A stretch of DNA of 23,465 nucleotides from Victivallales bacterium (GTDB lineage: Bacteria; Verrucomicrobiota; Lentisphaeria; Victivallales; Victivallaceae), in contig JAHOYW010000005.1 in NCBI GenBank assembly GCA_019038735.1, positions 1-23,465 of the forward strand. Reading direction: 5' to 3'. This document shows, one piece after another, positions 4,981 to 9,699 of this stretch; position 1 is the stretch's first letter; each line of letters opens with the position of its first letter. The notes under the pieces are model-generated. The model worked only from the letters and a program-made list of their open reading frames with translations, did not search any database and was not told the origin of the DNA. A program made the position numbers and the translations under genes.

Positions 4981-6630
4981 ATGGAAAAAACAAAAAAACG
5001 AATAATACTTAGCTGCGAAACGCTGGAAACACGTTTTGCCTTGCTAAACAATGACAAACTGGAAGAATACGAAATCGAGCGGGAAAGCGATGTCGCTAAA
5101 GCTGGCTCGGTGTATCTTGGGAAAATTGTAAATCTTGAAGCATCACTGCATGCCGCTTTTGTTGATATTGGCGCGGGCAAAAACGCTTTTCTGCATTATT
5201 GGGATATGCTTCCGGCGACTTTCGATATGAAAGATAAACTGCCTGACGATGAAAAAGGAAAAGAACAGGGTGTTAAAAAGAAAAATACACCTTTTGCTGA
5301 GAAGGTAAATTCTTTTTTGAAAAAGGACACCAAGTCCAAGCAAATTCGAGAAAAAAAGACAAAGCGTCAGAGGCAGCAATACACCATAAAAGATATTCCA
5401 ACTCTTTTCCCTCCTGGAACAGAATTACTTGTACAGGTAGTCAAAGCACCAATCGGAACTAAAGGCGCCAGACTGACGACAAACATTTCAATACCGGGTC
5501 GTTATCTTGTGCTGTTACCATATTCGGATCACATCGGATTGTCTAGTAAGATTGATAAAAAAGCGGAACGTAGCAGGTTGAAAAAGATTATTTCCAGTCT
5601 TGACATACCGCAAGGGATGGGAGTGATTTGCCGTACCGTTGGAGAGGGGCGAAAAGGAATATTTTTTAAGCGTGATCTTGATATGTTACTTGATTACTGG
5701 CATAAAGTGGAAAATATGTTGGAAAAACCTAAAGTTCCCTGTGAAGTTTATCGCGAACCGAATTTGCTTGAGCGAACTGTGCGTGATTTAATGACGGAGG
5801 ATATTGACGAAATTCATATTGATAACGCGGAAGATTACAGCAAAATCCGTAATTTATTGAATAAGTTTGGCGGTCAAAAAATGGCGGCGAAAGCCGCGTG
5901 TTACAAACAGGCGAAACCAATTTTTGAGTTTTTTAATGTCAAAAATCAGATTAATCAAATTTTCACCCGTGAAGTACCTCTGCCGAGCGGCGGTTGTATT
6001 TGTATAGATGAGACCGAAGCTTTGATTGCTATTGACGTCAATACCGGCAAAGGCAAAGGAAAACGTGTTGGCGAACATCCCGAAGTTATTGTTCAAACCA
6101 ATATCGAAGCTGCTGAAGAAGTCGCTCGTCAATTGCGTTTGCGCAATATCGGAGGTCTGGTCGTAATTGACTTCATAGATATGCGTGCATCGCGGGATCG
6201 CGATCAAATATTTAAACTTATGCGTAAGCTGGTAAGAAATGACCGGGCTAAATCCAAAATTCTTCCGCTCAGTCGTTTAGGTTTAATGGAAATGACCCGC
6301 CAGCGCGAACACGAAAGTTTGCAAAGCACTGTTCTTGATCGTTGTCCTTACTGTAGTGGTTCCGGTCATGTTAAATCATCTTTATCAATGAGTGTGGAAA
6401 TTCAAAGACGTTTACATTCTATATTCAAATCACGAGGGAACAAACGTATTGCAATCCGTATTTTCATGCATCCGGACATCTTGACGCGTTTGAAAAACGA
6501 GGATGCTGAATTGTTTGACAGTCTCGAAAAGGAGTACGGCAGAGATTTAAGTTTCCGTGGCGACAGCAGTATGCATCATGAGGAATTTAAGCTGGTGGAG
6601 CCTGAAAGCGGTAGGATATTAAAGGGCTGA
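4981..6630 (+). CDS. rng: Ribonuclease G/E family endoribonuclease
   Basis: A single-strand-specific endoribonuclease for rRNA maturation and mRNA decay. At 549 residues it is longer than classical RNase G (about 490) and lacks the long C-terminal scaffold of RNase E. The S1-like domain starts at SVYLGKIVNLEASLHAAF (43-60). It is interrupted by a lysine-rich insertion at about 80-140 and resumes at PPGTELLVQV. The catalytic metal aspartates are in AIDVNTGKG (Asp352) and VVIDFIDM (Asp397). The zinc-link motif is CPYCSGSGH (Cys455, Cys458). Three in-frame ATGs exist (4960, 4969, 4981); only the last has a usable AAGGA, 11 bases upstream at 4965-4969. The frame stays open upstream into fmt, but that part is not family sequence. 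Confidence 0.95.
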   Translation: MEKTKKRIILSCETLETRFALLNNDKLEEYEIERESDVAKAGSVYLGKIVNLEASLHAAFVDIGAGKNAFLHYWDMLPATFDMKDKLPDDEKGKEQGVKKKNTPFAEKVNSFLKKDTKSKQIREKKTKRQRQQYTIKDIPTLFPPGTELLVQVVKAPIGTKGARLTTNISIPGRYLVLLPYSDHIGLSSKIDKKAERSRLKKIISSLDIPQGMGVICRTVGEGRKGIFFKRDLDMLLDYWHKVENMLEKPKVPCEVYREPNLLERTVRDLMTEDIDEIHIDNAEDYSKIRNLLNKFGGQKMAAKAACYKQAKPIFEFFNVKNQINQIFTREVPLPSGGCICIDETEALIAIDVNTGKGKGKRVGEHPEVIVQTNIEAAEEVARQLRLRNIGGLVVIDFIDMRASRDRDQIFKLMRKLVRNDRAKSKILPLSRLGLMEMTRQREHESLQSTVLDRCPYCSGSGHVKSSLSMSVEIQRRLHSIFKSRGNKRIAIRIFMHPDILTRLKNEDAELFDSLEKEYGRDLSFRGDSSMHHEEFKLVEPESGRILKG

Positions 6631-6720
6631 ATCTTTTAAAATATCCAGTCCAGAATTAATCTGGTCGTGGTCTCGCGGCGACTTTAGCTATAGATATAAA
6701 CACTATGATTTTGACGAACA

Positions 6721-7143
6721 ATGATAAACATCACAAAAAATATAATCATTCCTGATGAGGAATTGAAAGAAGAATTCTTCCTTGCATCAGGCTCCGGCGG
6801 GCAGCATGTCAATAAAGTTGCTACGGCGGTTCGTCTGCGTTATAACGTGCGTACATCCAAAGTCTTGCCTTCTGATCTTCAGCAACGACTTTTGGATAAA
6901 TACCAAGCACGAATAACCAGTGATGGCGAAATATTAATCGAAGCGCGCCGTTCACGCAATCGCGAAAAAAACCGTCTTGACGCGGCGGAACGTTTAAAGG
7001 CATTAATCCTTAACTTTCTGCATCCACCCAAAAAACGTCGTCCAAGCAAGCCAACATACAATTCAGTCAAACGCCGGATTGAAAGCAAAAAAAAACATGG
7101 TGCTAATAAAAAACTAAGAGCAAAAAAGCCATCACTGGATTAG
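6721..7143 (+). CDS. arfB: Alternative ribosome-rescue peptidyl-tRNA hydrolase ArfB (YaeJ)
   Basis: It releases nascent chains from ribosomes stalled without a stop codon. The tail enters the empty mRNA channel and the GGQ loop hydrolyses peptidyl-tRNA. At 140 residues it has the length of ArfB, not of RF1/RF2. The SGSGGQHVNKVATAV motif (23-37) carries GGQ. The C-terminus is the expected long basic tail (KKRRPSKPTYNSVKRRIESK onward). The ATG at 6721 has no clear Shine-Dalgarno sequence. It lies 90 bases after rng on the same strand; that gap holds a small hairpin without a T-run. A structured repeat begins at the base after its stop codon. Confidence 0.95.
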   Translation: MINITKNIIIPDEELKEEFFLASGSGGQHVNKVATAVRLRYNVRTSKVLPSDLQQRLLDKYQARITSDGEILIEARRSRNREKNRLDAAERLKALILNFLHPPKKRRPSKPTYNSVKRRIESKKKHGANKKLRAKKPSLD

Positions 7144-7370
7144 AAAAATCTTCTAAAATAAAAATCCGCTTGACCGCGGTCGCTGGTGTAGCGGGCGACA
7201 GCGCTACTCGTCCCTCTCCAAGGGGCGACACTTAAGCCCGGAGGGCGCATTAGACCAATGCCGTTCTTGACTCTGCGTAGGCTGAGCCTGAGCAAAGCGA
7301 AAGGCAAAAGTGAGGCTTTGGGAAATTAGCATAGCGATATTTTCCAAAGATGCGAACGATCGAGCTGTCA
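7144..7370 (+). repeat. Structured element, left copy (inverted partner at 8480-8688; omega-RNA/HEARO-like)
   Basis: It starts immediately after the arfB stop. Reading +, it has an outer 38-nt block (7145-7182) that matches the other copy at 37 of 38 bases and ends in the palindrome GACCGCGGTC. Hairpin A follows (GTAGC, loop GGGCGACAGC, GCTAC, 7188-7207), then hairpin B abutting it (TCGTCCCT, loop CTCCA, AGGGGCGA, 7208-7228). Next come the linker ACTTAA, hairpin C (GCCC, GGA, GGGC, 7236-7246) and GCATTAGACC. After a variable part lies hairpin D (TTTGGGAAA 7317-7325, TTTTCCAAA 7340-7348), whose 12-nt loop is TAGCATAGCGAT, and finally GATGCGA to GAGCTGTCA (7349-7370). GACAGC in loop A can pair with GCTGTC (7364-7369), a possible pseudoknot, and GCAT (7247-7250) with ATGC (7350-7353). 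No protein frame is supported here. Confidence 0.8.
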
Positions 7371-7396
7371 AAAGAAAATATTTCCTGCTATTTTGA

Positions 7397-7425
7397 TTGA
7401 TTTTATATGTTTTCTACAGTACATT
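7397..7425 (+). promoter_or_regulatory. Candidate promoter for mrr
   Basis: TTGATT (7397-7402), 17-base spacer, and TACATT (7420-7425), upstream of a strong purine-rich ribosome binding site (GGAGAGG, 7449-7455). An alternative -10, TATCAT at 7433-7438, has only a poor -35. This lies inside the left structured element's inner edge, so mrr probably has its own transcript. Confidence 0.35.
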
Positions 7426-7457
7426 AGTGCATTATCATACAGAAAAAAGGAGAGGAA

Positions 7458-8415
7458 ATGATTCCAAAATATGAAGAAATAATGCTACCGTTCCTCAAGT
7501 ATATTGCAGATGGGAAAGAACACGGGTTGAGTGAAACTCATGATGCCTTGGCTAAACAATTTAAATTGACAGAGGATGAGCTTAGAAAACTTTTGCCAAG
7601 TGGAAGACAGCCTGTGTTTAGAAACAGATTAGGCTGGGCAAGGACTTATTTAAAAAAAGCAGGACTTATTTAAAAAAAGCAGGACTTATTTAAAAAAAGC
7701 AGGACTTCTAACCTCTCCTAAAAGAGCCCATTTTATAATCAATGACAAAGGCTTATCACTTCTGAAAGAAAAACCAACCGAAATATCTTCTAAATTTTTA
7801 ACAAAATATGACGATTTTGTAGAATTTAAATCAAGGAAAAAAGATAAAAAAGACGATGAATATTTGTTGCAAGTCGAACTTATTAACAATACCGATCAAA
7901 CCCCAGAAGAAGCTCTTGAGTACGCTTATCAAAAACTCCATTCAGAATTATCTAAAGAATTACTTGATATTGTAAAATCATGTTCTCCTGATTTTTTTGA
8001 AAATCTTGTTATAGATTTACTTATCACGATGGGGTATGGAGGTTCAAGAAGAGAAGCTGGACAAGCGATGGGAAAATCTGGCGATGGCGGAATTGATGGA
8101 ATAATTAACGAGGATAAACTCGGACTTGATGTTATATATCTTCAAGCGAAGCGGTGGGAGAACACTGTGCCAGTAAAAGAAATTCGTGATTTCACAGGAG
8201 CACTTGCGTCTAAGAAAGCTAAAAAAGGAATATTTATTACAACTTCGAGTTTTTCAAAAAGTGCTTACACGTTTATCGAGCAAGTAGAATATAAAATAAT
8301 TCTGATTGATGGTGAACGCCTTGCAGATTTGATGATAGAACATAATGTTGGACTGTCTGCGGTAAGCACCTATCATGTTAAAATTATTGACTCTGATTAT
8401 TTTGAAGAAAATTAG
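7458..8415 (+). pseudogene. mrr: Mrr-type restriction endonuclease, frame broken by a 20-bp triplication
   Basis: Mrr is a type IV restriction enzyme that cuts methylated DNA. The N-terminal winged-helix part (MIPKYEEIMLPFLKYIADG to NRLGWARTYLKKAGL, 7458 to about 7670) stops at the TAA at 7671. The rest continues in the +1 frame to 8415, starting TSPKRAHFIINDKG and including the PD-(D/E)xK catalytic core: FFENLVIDLL, GDGGIDGII, then QAKRW, and the downstream GIFITTSSFS and DGERLADLMIE. The interruption is three copies of AGGACTTATTTAAAAAAAGC at 7641-7700. With one copy the gene reads straight through as 305 residues, close to E. coli Mrr (304). As written the products would be a 71-residue fragment and an unstarted catalytic domain. 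It may be decayed, phase-variable or misassembled. It is AT-rich against its neighbours and has no partner methylase. Confidence 0.9.
7641..7707 (+). repeat. 20-bp tandem repeat, three copies plus 7 bases, inside mrr
   Basis: The unit AGGACTTATTTAAAAAAAGC occurs perfectly at 7641-7660, 7661-7680 and 7681-7700, followed by the partial AGGACTT at 7701-7707. Each unit contains a run of seven A. Since 20 is not a multiple of 3, each copy gained or lost changes the reading frame of mrr. One or four copies leave it open; two or three close it. Confidence 0.97.
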
Positions 8416-8447
8416 CAAAACGCATAACACGCAAAATTGAAGATAAT

Positions 8448-8476
8448 CAAACTACTTAGTGCAATATATTAGTTTG
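8448..8476 (+). other. Hairpin after mrr without a T-run
   Basis: Perfect 7-bp arms CAAACTA (8448-8454) and TAGTTTG (8470-8476) with a 15-nt loop, 33 bases after the mrr stop. No T-run follows on +, so it is a weak candidate for an mRNA 3' end. It sits at the inner edge of the right structured element. Confidence 0.35.
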
Positions 8477-8479
8477 TGT

Positions 8480-8688
8480 GACAACTCGAACGCTCGCATC
8501 TTTTTTCAAAAAACCGCTGTGCTATTTTTGAAAAAAGCCGAGCTTTGTCGAGAGCTGAATGGGTCTAATGCGCCATCCTTCGCAAAGCTATGGATGGCTT
8601 AAGTTTCGACCGCTTAGGCGGTCGACCAACGCTGTCGCCCGTTGGATCAACGACCGCGGTCAAGCGGATTTTTATTTTAAAAGATTTT
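8480..8688 (-). repeat. Structured element, right copy (inverted partner at 7144-7370; omega-RNA/HEARO-like)
   Basis: Read on the minus strand it begins at the base after the pta stop and has the same order of parts as the left copy. These are the outer 38-nt block (8688-8651), then hairpin A (CCAAC, loop GGGCGACAGC, GTTGG, plus-strand 8626-8645), abutting hairpin B (TCGACCGC, CTAA, GCGGTCGA, 8606-8625), then ACTTAA. Hairpin C is longer here (GCCATCC, 13 nt, GGATGGC, 8572-8598), followed by GCATTAGACC. Hairpin D is a perfect 12-bp stem (8501-8512 with 8525-8536) with loop TAGCACAGCGGT, and the end runs GATGCGA to GAGTTGTCA. Loops and linkers are kept while stem bases change in pairs. The plus strand at 8654-8673 (CCGC, GGTCAA, GCGG, then T-rich) could also act as a weak terminator for transcripts coming out of mrr. 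Confidence 0.8.
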
Positions 8689-9699
8689 TTATACCATACT
8701 CTGGCAGACTGTTATTGCCGCTACTCCATGAATATCCTCAGCCGAACAACCACGCGATAAATCGTTGATCGGACGAGCCAATCCCTGTAGGATCGGTCCA
8801 TAAGCTCCGGCTCCGGCCAAACGCTGAGTTAGTTTATAAGCTATGTTTCCGGCATTTAAGTCGGGGAAGATTAAAACATTTGCCGCTCCGGCAAGTTTGC
8901 TGTCAGGAGCTTTGGATTTAGCTACTGATGGAACTATTGCCGCGTCAACTTGAAGTTCGCCGTCGGCGATTATATCTAAGTTTTCAGCTTCGATCTTAGC
9001 TTTGAATTTTTTGGAAGCTTCAACAATCTTGTCAAGAAGTTCGTGCTTGGCACTGCCGTAAGTCGAGAATGAAAGAAATGCTACTTTAGGAGTTTTCCCC
9101 ATCAATGAACGGTAGGTATTGCAGGTTGCGATAGCGATATCAACTAGTTGGTCGGCATCGGGATCAGGATTTACGGCGCAGTCCGCGAACAATAATACAT
9201 TGTCTCCGGATTCCGTTGGAGTAAGTAAATCCATTATCATGCAACTGCTACCAGTTTTGATTCCAGGGGAGGTGCCGACACAGTTAAATGATGCCCTGAG
9301 CATATCTCCGGTAGAGGCGATACTGCCCGCCACTAAACCGTCAACCATATTATTGCGGGTCATTAAAGCCCCAAAGAAAATACGATTTTTGATGGATTCT
9401 CGAGCTTGTTCGATGGAAATATTCTTTTTCTTGCGGATTTCTTTGAATTGTTCAGCGTATTCCTCGAAGAAATCACAGCTTAGGTAATCAAGACATGTGA
9501 ATTTACGTTCAGAGATATTGGCTTTCGCGCAAGCGGCAACGATTTCTGATTCAGTGCCGAGGACTATGACTTCAGAAGCAATTTTGTCTTCGATAATCAT
9601 GTTGGCGGCGGCGACTACCCGTGGATCCTGACCTTCGGGTAAAACTAATTTTTTAGCCCCTTGACGAGCTTTTTCTATAAATAAATCAATAGCAGACAT
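8689..9699 (-). CDS. pta: Phosphate acetyltransferase (phosphotransacetylase)
   Basis: It interconverts acetyl-CoA plus phosphate and acetyl phosphate plus CoA, working with AckA to make acetate and ATP. At 336 residues it is the short single-domain form without the N-terminal DRTGG regulatory region of the enteric enzyme. Visible motifs are KLVLPEGQDPRVVAAA near the start, FFGALMTRNNMVDGLVAGS, then SSCMIMDL, LFADCAVNPDPDADQLVDIA, LSFSTYGSA, DGELQVDAA, and the C-terminal NVLIFPDLNAGNIAYKL. The ATG at 9699 has AGGA 8 bases upstream. It follows ackA by 21 bases and should share its transcript. Its stop codon directly adjoins the right structured repeat. Confidence 0.97.
   Translation of the reverse strand: MSAIDLFIEKARQGAKKLVLPEGQDPRVVAAANMIIEDKIASEVIVLGTESEIVAACAKANISERKFTCLDYLSCDFFEEYAEQFKEIRKKKNISIEQARESIKNRIFFGALMTRNNMVDGLVAGSIASTGDMLRASFNCVGTSPGIKTGSSCMIMDLLTPTESGDNVLLFADCAVNPDPDADQLVDIAIATCNTYRSLMGKTPKVAFLSFSTYGSAKHELLDKIVEASKKFKAKIEAENLDIIADGELQVDAAIVPSVAKSKAPDSKLAGAANVLIFPDLNAGNIAYKLTQRLAGAGAYGPILQGLARPINDLSRGCSAEDIHGVAAITVCQSMV

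What the first reader, a model, noticed from the sequence alone, without database searches (positions are those of the whole stretch)
7144..8688. Two inverted, structure-conserving elements flank the mrr locus
Seen directly: the segments 7144-7370 (+) and 8688-8480 (-) have the same order of parts. The outer 38 nt match at 37 of 38. Inside, loops and linkers are conserved (GGGCGACAGC, ACTTAA, GCATTAGACC, a 12-nt loop TAGCAYAGCGRT, GATGCGA, TCGAG) while stem bases differ in matched pairs. Hairpin A changes from GTAGC/GCTAC to CCAAC/GTTGG, hairpin B from TCGTCCCT/AGGGGCGA to TCGACCGC/GCGGTCGA, and hairpin D is wholly replaced but still pairs. Both copies keep a possible pseudoknot between GACAGC in loop A and GCTGTC or GTTGTC near the inner end. 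Paired changes are the mark of selection on a folded RNA or folded single-strand DNA.
Basis: seen in the sequence. Interest (0 to 1): 0.85.

Follow-up and report, generated by a model that had tools for sequence, protein, structure and literature searches.

The report
Structured RNA repeats beside bacterial genes
The two folded repeats belong to a large, uncatalogued family of short mobile DNA elements in Victivallales bacteria that carry a knotted RNA, often sit just behind the stop codons of genes, and in one form insert almost to the base in front of ribosome-binding sites.

Summary
A (7144-7370, +) and B (8689-8479, -) are two of about 40 copies in this 1.74-Mb Victivallales genome. The three other same-genus genomes have copies; 27 of 78 family genomes match (own included). 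No Rfam family matched.

On 78 copies a structure with two pseudoknots pairs in 94.6% of cells (slid controls 36-47%), with 348 double-change cells against 90 in shuffles. G-U cells exceed A-C cells 135 to 29 (62 to 29 without two dominant pairs), favouring RNA read in the sense of the upstream gene.

The core rides in short inverted-repeat elements with four end sequences in two classes. The 'a' form in G001 makes 8-bp target duplications and has a Shine-Dalgarno AGG 3-4 nt beyond its 3' end plus duplication in 18 of 22 copies (background 2.7%). In G000/G002, 41 of 47 sense-oriented copies lie within 25 nt of a stop codon.

Host function (co-transcribed barrier plus antisense terminator) is inference; whether selection acts on host or element is open.

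The parts
7144..7370 (+). Copy A of the element: A-rich leader directly after the arfB-like stop codon, structured core (7159-7364), 3' end GCTGTCA
   Evidence: R1 E=2.1e-37 for 7159-7364
8479..8689 (-). Copy B: leader directly after the pta stop codon, core (8485-8674), 3' end TTGTCA
   Evidence: R1 E=5.9e-39
6631..6681 (+). Third, truncated copy (leader, P1 of the GTCCAGAATTAATCTGG type, PK strand, start of P2) directly after the RNase E/G stop codon
   Evidence: by eye near-identical to the 5' module of L063 (G000 contig 47)
7166..7179 (+). Copy A hairpin P1: CCGC 7166-7169 with GCGG 7176-7179; with the A-rich leader, terminator-like on the minus strand
   Evidence: sequence; a hairpin in the first 28 nt of 111 of 119 copies, 18% of shuffles
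7180..7198 (+). Copy A pseudoknot PK: TCGCT 7180-7184 with GGCGA 7194-7198
   Evidence: sequence; helix 1: 95.2% paired, 4 of 5 pairs with changes on both sides (copy A itself is not in that alignment)
7188..7207 (+). Copy A P2: GTAGCG 7188-7193 with CGCTAC 7202-7207
   Evidence: sequence; helix 2: 97.6% paired, 6 of 6 pairs with changes on both sides
7208..7228 (+). Copy A P3: TCGTCCCT 7208-7215 with AGGGGCGA 7221-7228
   Evidence: sequence; helix 3: 95.9% paired, 6 of 8 pairs with changes on both sides
7236..7246 (+). Copy A P4: GCCC 7236-7239 with GGGC 7243-7246
   Evidence: sequence; helix 4 (three pairs): 94.4% paired
7247..7353 (+). Copy A P8: GCAT 7247-7250 with ATGC 7350-7353; crosses P7 (second pseudoknot)
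   Evidence: helices 5-6: weaker, 82% and 72% paired, gapped in up to 26 of 78 copies
7266..7364 (+). Copy A P7: CTTGA 7266-7270 with TCGAG 7360-7364, closing around P6
   Evidence: helix 7: 96.1% paired; CTCAAA/TTTGAG in L063 and L219; CTCCCGC/GCGGGAG in G121
7271..7309 (+). Foreign dispersed repeat inserted between the P7 strand and P6 of copy A (about 39 nt, edges approximate)
   Evidence: absent from most aligned copies; matches other contigs alone
7316..7349 (+). Copy A P6: CTTTGG 7316-7321 with CCAAAG 7344-7349
   Evidence: helix 8: 96.4% paired, 5 of 5 pairs with changes on both sides
8635..8653 (-). Copy B pseudoknot PK: minus-strand TCGTT (8653-8649) with GGCGA (8639-8635)
   Evidence: sequence
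8626..8645 (-). Copy B P2: minus-strand CCAACG (8645-8640) with CGTTGG (8631-8626)
   Evidence: sequence
8606..8625 (-). Copy B P3: minus-strand TCGACCGC (8625-8618) with GCGGTCGA (8613-8606)
   Evidence: sequence
8500..8537 (-). Copy B P6: 13-pair hairpin 8500-8512/8525-8537
   Evidence: I14
8485..8552 (-). Copy B P7: minus-strand CTCGA (8552-8548) with TCGAG (8489-8485); P8 GCAT (8571-8568) with ATGC (8499-8496) crosses it
   Evidence: sequence
7864..8415 (+). Mrr-type (type IV) restriction enzyme, C-terminal part; occupies the space between A and B, probably unrelated to their function
   Evidence: PF04471, 7.4e-37; mREase_IV, 4.1e-62
6721..7143 (+). ArfB-like RF-1 domain gene, upstream neighbour of A
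   Evidence: PF00472, 3.3e-20
8689..9699 (-). pta, upstream neighbour of B; the G002 orthologue (92% identical) also has an element at its 3' end

Best explanation
A and B are two copies of a family of structured RNA repeats of Victivallales bacteria. Shown: a core of about 170 nt whose sense strand (that of the upstream gene) is conserved as hairpins P1-P4 and P6, an H-type pseudoknot (PK/P2) and a second crossing helix pair (P7 with the weaker P8). Shown: the core is carried by short inverted-repeat elements (MITEs) with four end sequences, in two classes by duplication length (8 bp: a, c; 6 bp: b, d). Shown: copies of the 'a' form have an 8-bp target duplication and their 3' end a few nt before a Shine-Dalgarno sequence. 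Shown: in this genome and G002 most sense-oriented copies sit within 25 nt of a stop codon. Inferred: the element is co-transcribed with the upstream gene as 3'-UTR or intercistronic RNA, and the fold works as a barrier that insulates cistrons and blocks 3'-to-5' decay. Also inferred: the A-rich leader plus P1, read on the other strand, is an intrinsic terminator that stops antisense transcription before it enters the gene, so tail-to-tail pairs such as A/B act as two-way insulators of convergent genes. Identity as a conserved RNA-bearing mobile family: about 0.9. The functional role: about 0.4.
For: Copies: 46 model matches in the own genome at E<=1. Of 41 genomes, 7 had matches: G000, G001 (67), G002 (43), G003 (9) and three with one each. 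With the wider model R2, 27 of 78 family genomes (at most 36 candidates scored per genome) and 25 of 387 phylum genomes (at most 7 scored) match, all 25 in the same order. R1 over the order: 12 of 137.

Fold: 94.6% of 2939 cells paired, 30 of 39 pairs with changes on both sides, all five measures above all 500 shuffles and all slid controls (78 copies). Hairpin P1 in 111 of 119 copies. G-U 135 against A-C 29 cells.

Selection: among 27 recent G001 'a' copies, stems changed at 12 of 1782 sites and loops at 128 of 2781.

Mobility: of 'a' copies with both ends recognised, 14 of 19 have exact 8-bp duplications (16 with at least 7; control 0 of 342); 'b' 6 of 6 exact 6-bp; 'c' 4 of 6 exact 8-bp.

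Placement: AGG at +3/+4 after the duplication in 18 of 22 (background 2.7%), and AGG read outward at the other end in 2 of 26; SD adjacency also in G000 L222 and G002 L215. Upstream gene on the same strand in 96 of 132 copies with an upstream gene on the contig. 41 of 47 within 25 nt of the stop codon, chance 0.10, or 0.125 with element lengths taken out of the gaps.

Antisense terminator-like 89 of 118 copies, sense 1 of 118, random 30 of 620. Close pairs in G000+G002: 9 tail-to-tail, 2 direct, 0 head-to-head.
Against: No expression data, so transcription of the element is not shown. In six G000/G002 orthologous 3'-end sites, with neighbouring proteins 88-96% identical, the cores are 49-76% identical (the lowest a truncated G002 copy) and never each other's best match (ranks 16, 32, 15, 3, 2, 8 of 32). 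That fits turnover or re-insertion as well as host-level conservation of each copy. 'b' copies show no stem protection (47/840 stem, 92/1582 loop; one helix was not scored there) and no sense bias (5 same, 10 opposite). Stem protection in 'a' could reflect selection on source elements. The G-U excess is absent in P2, P6 and P7; 73 of the 135 cells come from two pairs, without which it is 62 to 29; mutational bias could add to it. P8 is weak (72-82% paired). 12 of 30 G002 copies lack the antisense terminator-like pattern, many of them, by eye, with a P1 type not directly next to the A-run, and the tool's stricter scan called no terminator in 6600-8800. In G001 close pairs are not mainly tail-to-tail (1 of 5). 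The structure was read from these same sequences, which favours it over slid controls.
Confidence: 0.5

Rival explanations
1. The fold serves the element, not the host: the RNA (or the DNA that encodes it) is needed in cis for mobilisation by a transposase supplied elsewhere, and host copies are by-products.
For: The core is conserved inside elements with four end sequences; recent bursts in G001 and G129; core turnover at shared sites; near base-precise target choice in 'a'; no sense bias in 'b'.
Against: No transposase was found with these ends: the one full-length ISL3-type gene of G000 showed no matching ends in the 2.3 kb held, and the listed end pairs in G129 were short (list truncated). 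Different ends suggest different transposases, which makes one shared RNA cofactor less likely. Old, divergent copies in G000/G002 keep their pairs. The position after stop codons would be unexplained.
Confidence: 0.28
2. The core is a self-cleaving or processing RNA (ribozyme-like) that trims the 3' end of the upstream mRNA or separates cistrons.
For: Compact double-pseudoknot topology; invariant positions outside the stems; location between stop codon and the next gene.
Against: No match to any Rfam family, ribozymes included, in the copies searched at E<=5-10; no experimental hint of a cleavage site.
Confidence: 0.1
3. DNA-level explanation: quasi-palindromes kept paired by template switching, or hairpins of single-stranded DNA acting in replication or recombination.
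For: Stem types occur as discrete variants shared among copies (P1, P3), as expected if stems are rewritten; G-U and A-C cells are about equal in P2, P6 and P7.
Against: Template switching cannot easily keep the interleaved PK and P2 helices or the long-range P7; the G-U excess elsewhere is strand-specific; loops and linkers are conserved as well.
Confidence: 0.08
4. A and B are the long inverted ends of one composite transposon that carries mrr.
For: Tail-to-tail orientation, 38 of 39 outer bases alike; accessory AT-rich genes in several such intervals; in one other pair (C78) the mates are near best matches.
Against: In eight of nine pairs mates are no more alike than other copies. G002 has the element at pta without an mrr or arfB match in the 0.75 kb left of that contig. 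I saw no duplication outside the pair. Most copies have no partner within 3 kb on the held contigs.
Confidence: 0.04

Closest known systems
bcr1 and other bcr repeats of the Bacillus cereus group
   Same: About 150-nt MITE-like dispersed repeats; copies found in UTRs and within operons; some bcr families have conserved secondary structure (passages of PMC3446304; table of PMC2267715).
   Different: Different lineage, no Rfam match; here two pseudoknots, several kinds of ends for one core, and a Shine-Dalgarno-adjacent insertion in the 'a' form, none of which the passages I saw mention.
YPAL/RU-2 and ERIC of Yersinia and enterobacteria
   Same: 127-168-bp mobile stem-loop repeats; YPAL makes target duplications and is read with upstream genes, with a possible effect on upstream RNA stability; ERIC is co-transcribed with its neighbours (passages of PMC2229807; sizes also from the listing of PMC2759123).
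   Different: YPAL duplications of 3-26 bp and targets at dyad symmetry; here 8- or 6-bp duplications, inverted-repeat ends, an SD-adjacent target in 'a' and a covarying double pseudoknot.
IS1202-family elements (ISAjo2 relatives)
   Same: One orientation at a fixed distance (5 bp) from a protein-binding site (abstract start of PMC10132070, search listing).
   Different: 1.5-kb elements aimed at dif/XerC sites; here 0.4-0.5-kb elements, 3-4 nt plus the duplication away from a Shine-Dalgarno motif.
STAXI motif and other candidate structured RNAs of Weinberg 2010 (including Acido-Lenti-1, RF01687)
   Same: STAXI is a repeated pseudoknot of unknown role; Acido-Lenti-1 is listed for Lentisphaerae (passages of PMC2864571).
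   Different: No match to any Rfam family, RF01687 included, in the window and the 12 loci searched.

Membership tests
MITE (non-autonomous inverted-repeat element) | Terminal inverted repeats | tested here: met
   'a' GGTAGTGTCAAAAAT/ATTTTTGACAGAACC, 'b' GACGRCACCGMCAAAAGT, 'c' GGCTGTGTACTAAAC..; 'd' GACGGCAGTCTCA by eye, its tip resembles 'b'; not visible at the outer edges of the window copies
MITE (non-autonomous inverted-repeat element) | Target-site duplication | tested here: met
   14 of 19, 6 of 6 and 4 of 6 exact in G001 'a', G001 'b' and G129 'c'; not seen for the window copies
MITE (non-autonomous inverted-repeat element) | A related autonomous element supplies the transposase | tested here: inconclusive
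   none found; draft genomes, truncated lists
bcr1/YPAL/ERIC-type structured repeat | Short dispersed, intergenic folded repeat | tested here: met
bcr1/YPAL/ERIC-type structured repeat | Co-transcription with neighbouring genes | not testable with these tools
   no expression data held
bcr1/YPAL/ERIC-type structured repeat | Sequence relationship to one of those families | not tested
   the repeat families themselves were not compared; the exact P3 pattern hit only two Victivallales genomes among the genome contigs
Known Rfam RNA family | Match above gathering score | tested here: not met
   no match of the window to 4227 families
omega-RNA of IscB/IsrB elements | RRXRR-domain protein in the genome | tested here: inconclusive
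   0 of 4 genomes, but the control genomes were silent too
Composite transposon with long inverted ends | Two ends of one unit are homologous beyond background and flanked by one duplication | tested here: not met
   window mates 65.5% identical against a mean of 68.4%; eight of nine pairs at background; no flanking duplication seen
Integron attC site | Integrase and R/L core boxes | not tested
   features recalled; the host genes here are chromosomal genes such as pta

The most novel reading that the evidence does not exclude
The conserved RNA itself directs where the element goes: in the 'a' form the structured transcript (or an RNA-protein complex built on it) recognises ribosome-binding regions, giving an RNA-assisted transposon that inserts in one orientation directly before Shine-Dalgarno sequences and thereby installs an RNA insulator between cistrons. 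The evidence shows the precise target and the conserved RNA, not a link between them.
Probability: 0.08. Interest if true: 0.95.

Novelty: new variant of a known kind. Interest (0 to 1): 0.72.

Why it matters
Structured mobile repeats are known, but this one joins features that I have not seen together: a covarying double-pseudoknot RNA shared by elements with different ends, and a form that sits almost to the base, 3' end first, before Shine-Dalgarno sites. If the RNA insulates cistrons, it is a lineage-wide regulatory part spread by transposition. If it steers insertion, it is a new way of choosing a target. Either way it gives many natural compensatory variants for testing an unknown RNA fold.

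Tried and rejected
Known RNA families: Rfam at gathering score and at E<=5-10 gave only scattered weak matches that I take as chance. IscB/omega-RNA: no RRXRR protein, control silent. ISL3 transposase as the mobiliser: one full-length gene in G000 contig 81 without matching ends in the stretch held. Autonomous copy for the 'c' ends in G129: 103 ends, the listed pairs short, list truncated. Phages, plasmids, viral contigs: no match (one copy or one pattern each). A sense-strand terminator at the 5' edge: 1 of 118. My first structure had a local hairpin P5 (CTCG/CGAG); P7 fits better (96.1% of cells against 274 of 312). My first P4 and P6a registers were wrong and were corrected.

Rows dropped before counts: of 37 G000, 32 G002, 6 G003 and 49 G001 copies, 82 were chosen by length (150-195 nt) and, for G001, by hand (18 of 49, close duplicates left out); A2 holds 78 of these, four with insertions or deletions left out. 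Copy A itself is not in A2 because of its insert. For target duplications, 13 of 32 'a' and 11 of 17 'b' copies had no pair of ends recognised by my patterns. For the SD offset, 10 of 32 'a' copies had no 3' end found. For orientation, 12 of 144 copies had no upstream gene on the contig. One 'c' element at a contig start was not usable. Gene calls are from my own simple codon-usage caller. Other copies of G001 lie outside the stretches that I fetched.

A claim that SD-adjacent MITEs are not in print rests only on the searches and 100 of an open-access library. None of the 12 papers listed holds the word Victivallales. Papers: PMC2229807, PMC3446304, PMC2267715 and PMC2864571 were seen as found passages only; PMC10132070 and PMC2759123 as search listings only; the rest as listings. 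That ISL3-type elements have such ends is recalled.

Full report
CHECK OF THE OBSERVATION. The two segments are inverted copies as described: inverted arms of 70, 32 and 25 nt, and outer 39 nt with one difference. A lies directly after the stop codon of an arfB-like gene (6721-7143), B directly after the stop codon of pta (8689-9699, minus strand); between them is an mrr-type restriction gene (mREase_IV) whose frame is broken upstream of 7864. A carries a separate dispersed repeat inserted near 7271-7309. A third, truncated copy lies at 6631-6681, directly after the RNase E/G stop codon.

A FAMILY, NOT A PAIR. DNA search of the same genome (G000, 72% complete) gave 54 pieces. A covariance model of 22 copies (A1, R1) found 46 places in G000 at E<=1, 40 of them at E<=1.4e-8. 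In one search, 7 of 41 genomes had matches: the four of the genus (G001 67, G002 43, G003 9) and three others with one each. R1 matched 12 of 137 genomes of the order at E<=1e-4. A wider model (A3, R2) matched 27 of 78 family genomes and 25 of 387 phylum genomes, all 25 in the same order. These scans score a limited number of candidates per genome (36 and 7) and their E-values are rough, so counts are lower bounds. One copy each against phages and plasmids, and one pattern against viral contigs, gave nothing; Rfam gave nothing for the window and 12 loci.

THE FOLD. On 78 aligned copies (A2) I wrote a structure with P2, P3, P4, P6 and P7, the pseudoknot PK and the crossing helix P8. It pairs in 94.6% of 2939 cells; slid versions reach 36-47%. 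30 of 39 pairs show changes on both sides; 348 double-change cells against 90 in shuffles; no shuffle of 500 reaches any observed value. The shuffles ignore relatedness, and the structure was read from these same sequences, so these numbers are strong, not final. P1 could not be aligned across its types; a hairpin is present in 111 of 119 copies (18% in shuffles). P8 is weak (82% and 72%). G-U outnumbers A-C 135 to 29; without its two dominant pairs 62 to 29, and 19 pairs lean to G-U, 8 to A-C. So the structured strand is probably that of the upstream gene; P2, P6 and P7 are neutral on this point (10 G-U, 13 A-C). P7 is supported by CTCAAA/TTTGAG copies and, in G121, CTCCCGC/GCGGGAG.

MOBILITY. 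In G001 the core sits in inverted-repeat elements. 'a': 404-480 bp, exact 8-bp duplications in 14 of 19 (16 with at least 7; control 0 of 342); 'b': 244-254 bp, exact 6-bp duplications in 6 of 6. 'c' in G129: 275-365 bp, exact 8-bp duplications in 4 of 6. A fourth end sequence, 'd', occurs in G127 and in one G001 copy; its tip resembles 'b', so there may be only three kinds. Two copies of G000 (L034, L036) and one of G002 (L215) still show an 'a'-like left end; the window copies do not. I found no autonomous copy.

TARGET. For 'a' the bases after the duplication are striking: an AGG begins 4 nt later in 14 of 22 and 3 nt later in 4 of 22 (one at 1, one at 5, two without), with a start codon at the expected distance in 19 of 22; background 2.7% for offsets 3-4. 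At the other end an outward AGG at any offset up to 19 occurs in 2 of 26, so it is the 3' end that faces the gene. The same is seen in a G000 copy (L222, ACTCTAAAAAGGAGG) and, with its 8-bp duplication, in a G002 copy (L215). I judge that selection against harmful insertions does not explain a peak one or two bases wide. The 'b' and 'c' right flanks that I printed show no such pattern.

PLACEMENT. Among copies with an upstream gene on the contig, that gene is on the same strand in 24 of 34 (G000), 23 of 29 (G002), 5 of 6 (G003), 30 of 46 (G001), 10 of 13 (G129) and 4 of 4 (G118, G121, G127): 96 of 132. Within G001, 'a' is 25 same, 6 opposite, and 'b' 5 same, 10 opposite. In G000 and G002, 41 of 47 same-strand copies lie within 25 nt of the stop codon; a random base in the same gaps would do so in 10%, or 12.5% with elements taken out of the gaps. 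On the opposite strand, leader and P1 look like an intrinsic terminator in 89 of 118 copies (sense 1 of 118; random 30 of 620); the stricter tool scan found none in the window, where P1 has only four pairs. Close neighbours in G000 and G002 are tail-to-tail in 9 cases, direct in 2, head-to-head in none, but eight of nine mates are not more alike than other copies, and G001 lacks the pattern.

SELECTION OR TURNOVER. In 27 recent G001 'a' copies stems are changed seven times less often than loops (12 of 1782, 128 of 2781), but not in 14 'b' copies (47 of 840, 92 of 1582; one helix unscored). At six 3' ends shared by G000 and G002 the cores are only 49-76% identical and not best matches; one of these is a truncated G002 copy. 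The 5' modules come in discrete types whose mix differs between the genomes. So sites persist while sequence is exchanged; whether by re-insertion, conversion or mutation is open.

MECHANISM. I commit to a co-transcribed intercistronic or 3'-UTR barrier with an antisense terminator at its gene-proximal edge, spread by transposition (functional part about 0.4). The chief rival is that the RNA serves the element. Known relatives by kind are bcr repeats and YPAL/ERIC (passages); membership by sequence was not tested against them directly. Verdict: a real, large and uncatalogued structured mobile repeat family; new variant of a known kind, with an SD-adjacent insertion mode that I have not found described in the searches listed.

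Noticed in passing
window 7641-7707: A 20-nt unit (AGGACTTATTTAAAAAAAGC) stands three times in a row inside the mrr gene, next to the place where its reading frame is broken.
   Followed up: no
window 7271-7309; L035, L046, L048, L051, L054 and others: A REP-like repeat (CTCTGCGTAGGCTGAGCCTGAGCAAAGCGAAAGGC) dispersed in the genome; several element copies carry it or a relative in a loop (A, L034, L036, L050).
   Followed up: partly
L203 10350-11103 (G002, after pta): In G002 the space after the pta element holds an AT-rich reading frame without a Pfam match instead of mrr, so this spot may be a site of gene exchange.
   Followed up: partly
L208 4964-6163; L037 170-1183: Tail-to-tail pairs enclose accessory genes: YefM-YoeB toxin-antitoxin genes and a DUF2806 gene (AT-rich intervals).
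   Followed up: partly
L105, L108, L111 3' flanks; L044 interior: A second small inverted-repeat element (CGGCTCAAGAGGACTTTCGCCCTCC ... GGAGGGCGAGACTCCGTCGAGCCG) lies beside several copies.
   Followed up: no
L040, L049, L057, L060 3' flanks: A recurring sequence like CAATCTTTCCCGCGTGAGCG just downstream of several cores.
   Followed up: no
G021 contig 1, 1472263-1473011: Three 80-nt model matches within 750 bp in a near-complete genome: the 5' module (P1-PK-P2-P3) may exist on its own.
   Followed up: no
L245 1501-1632 (G003); L247 1501-1647 (G002): 'b'-type ends around other contents: L245 holds a different hairpin sequence, L247 what looks like an internally deleted core.
   Followed up: partly
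L119-L149 'a' copies, 3' half: A nested palindromic segment (ACTTTATCGCCACTTCCTTGTCAA ... TTGACAAAAAAGCAGCGATAAAGT) sits between core and right end in most 'a' copies printed but not all.
   Followed up: no
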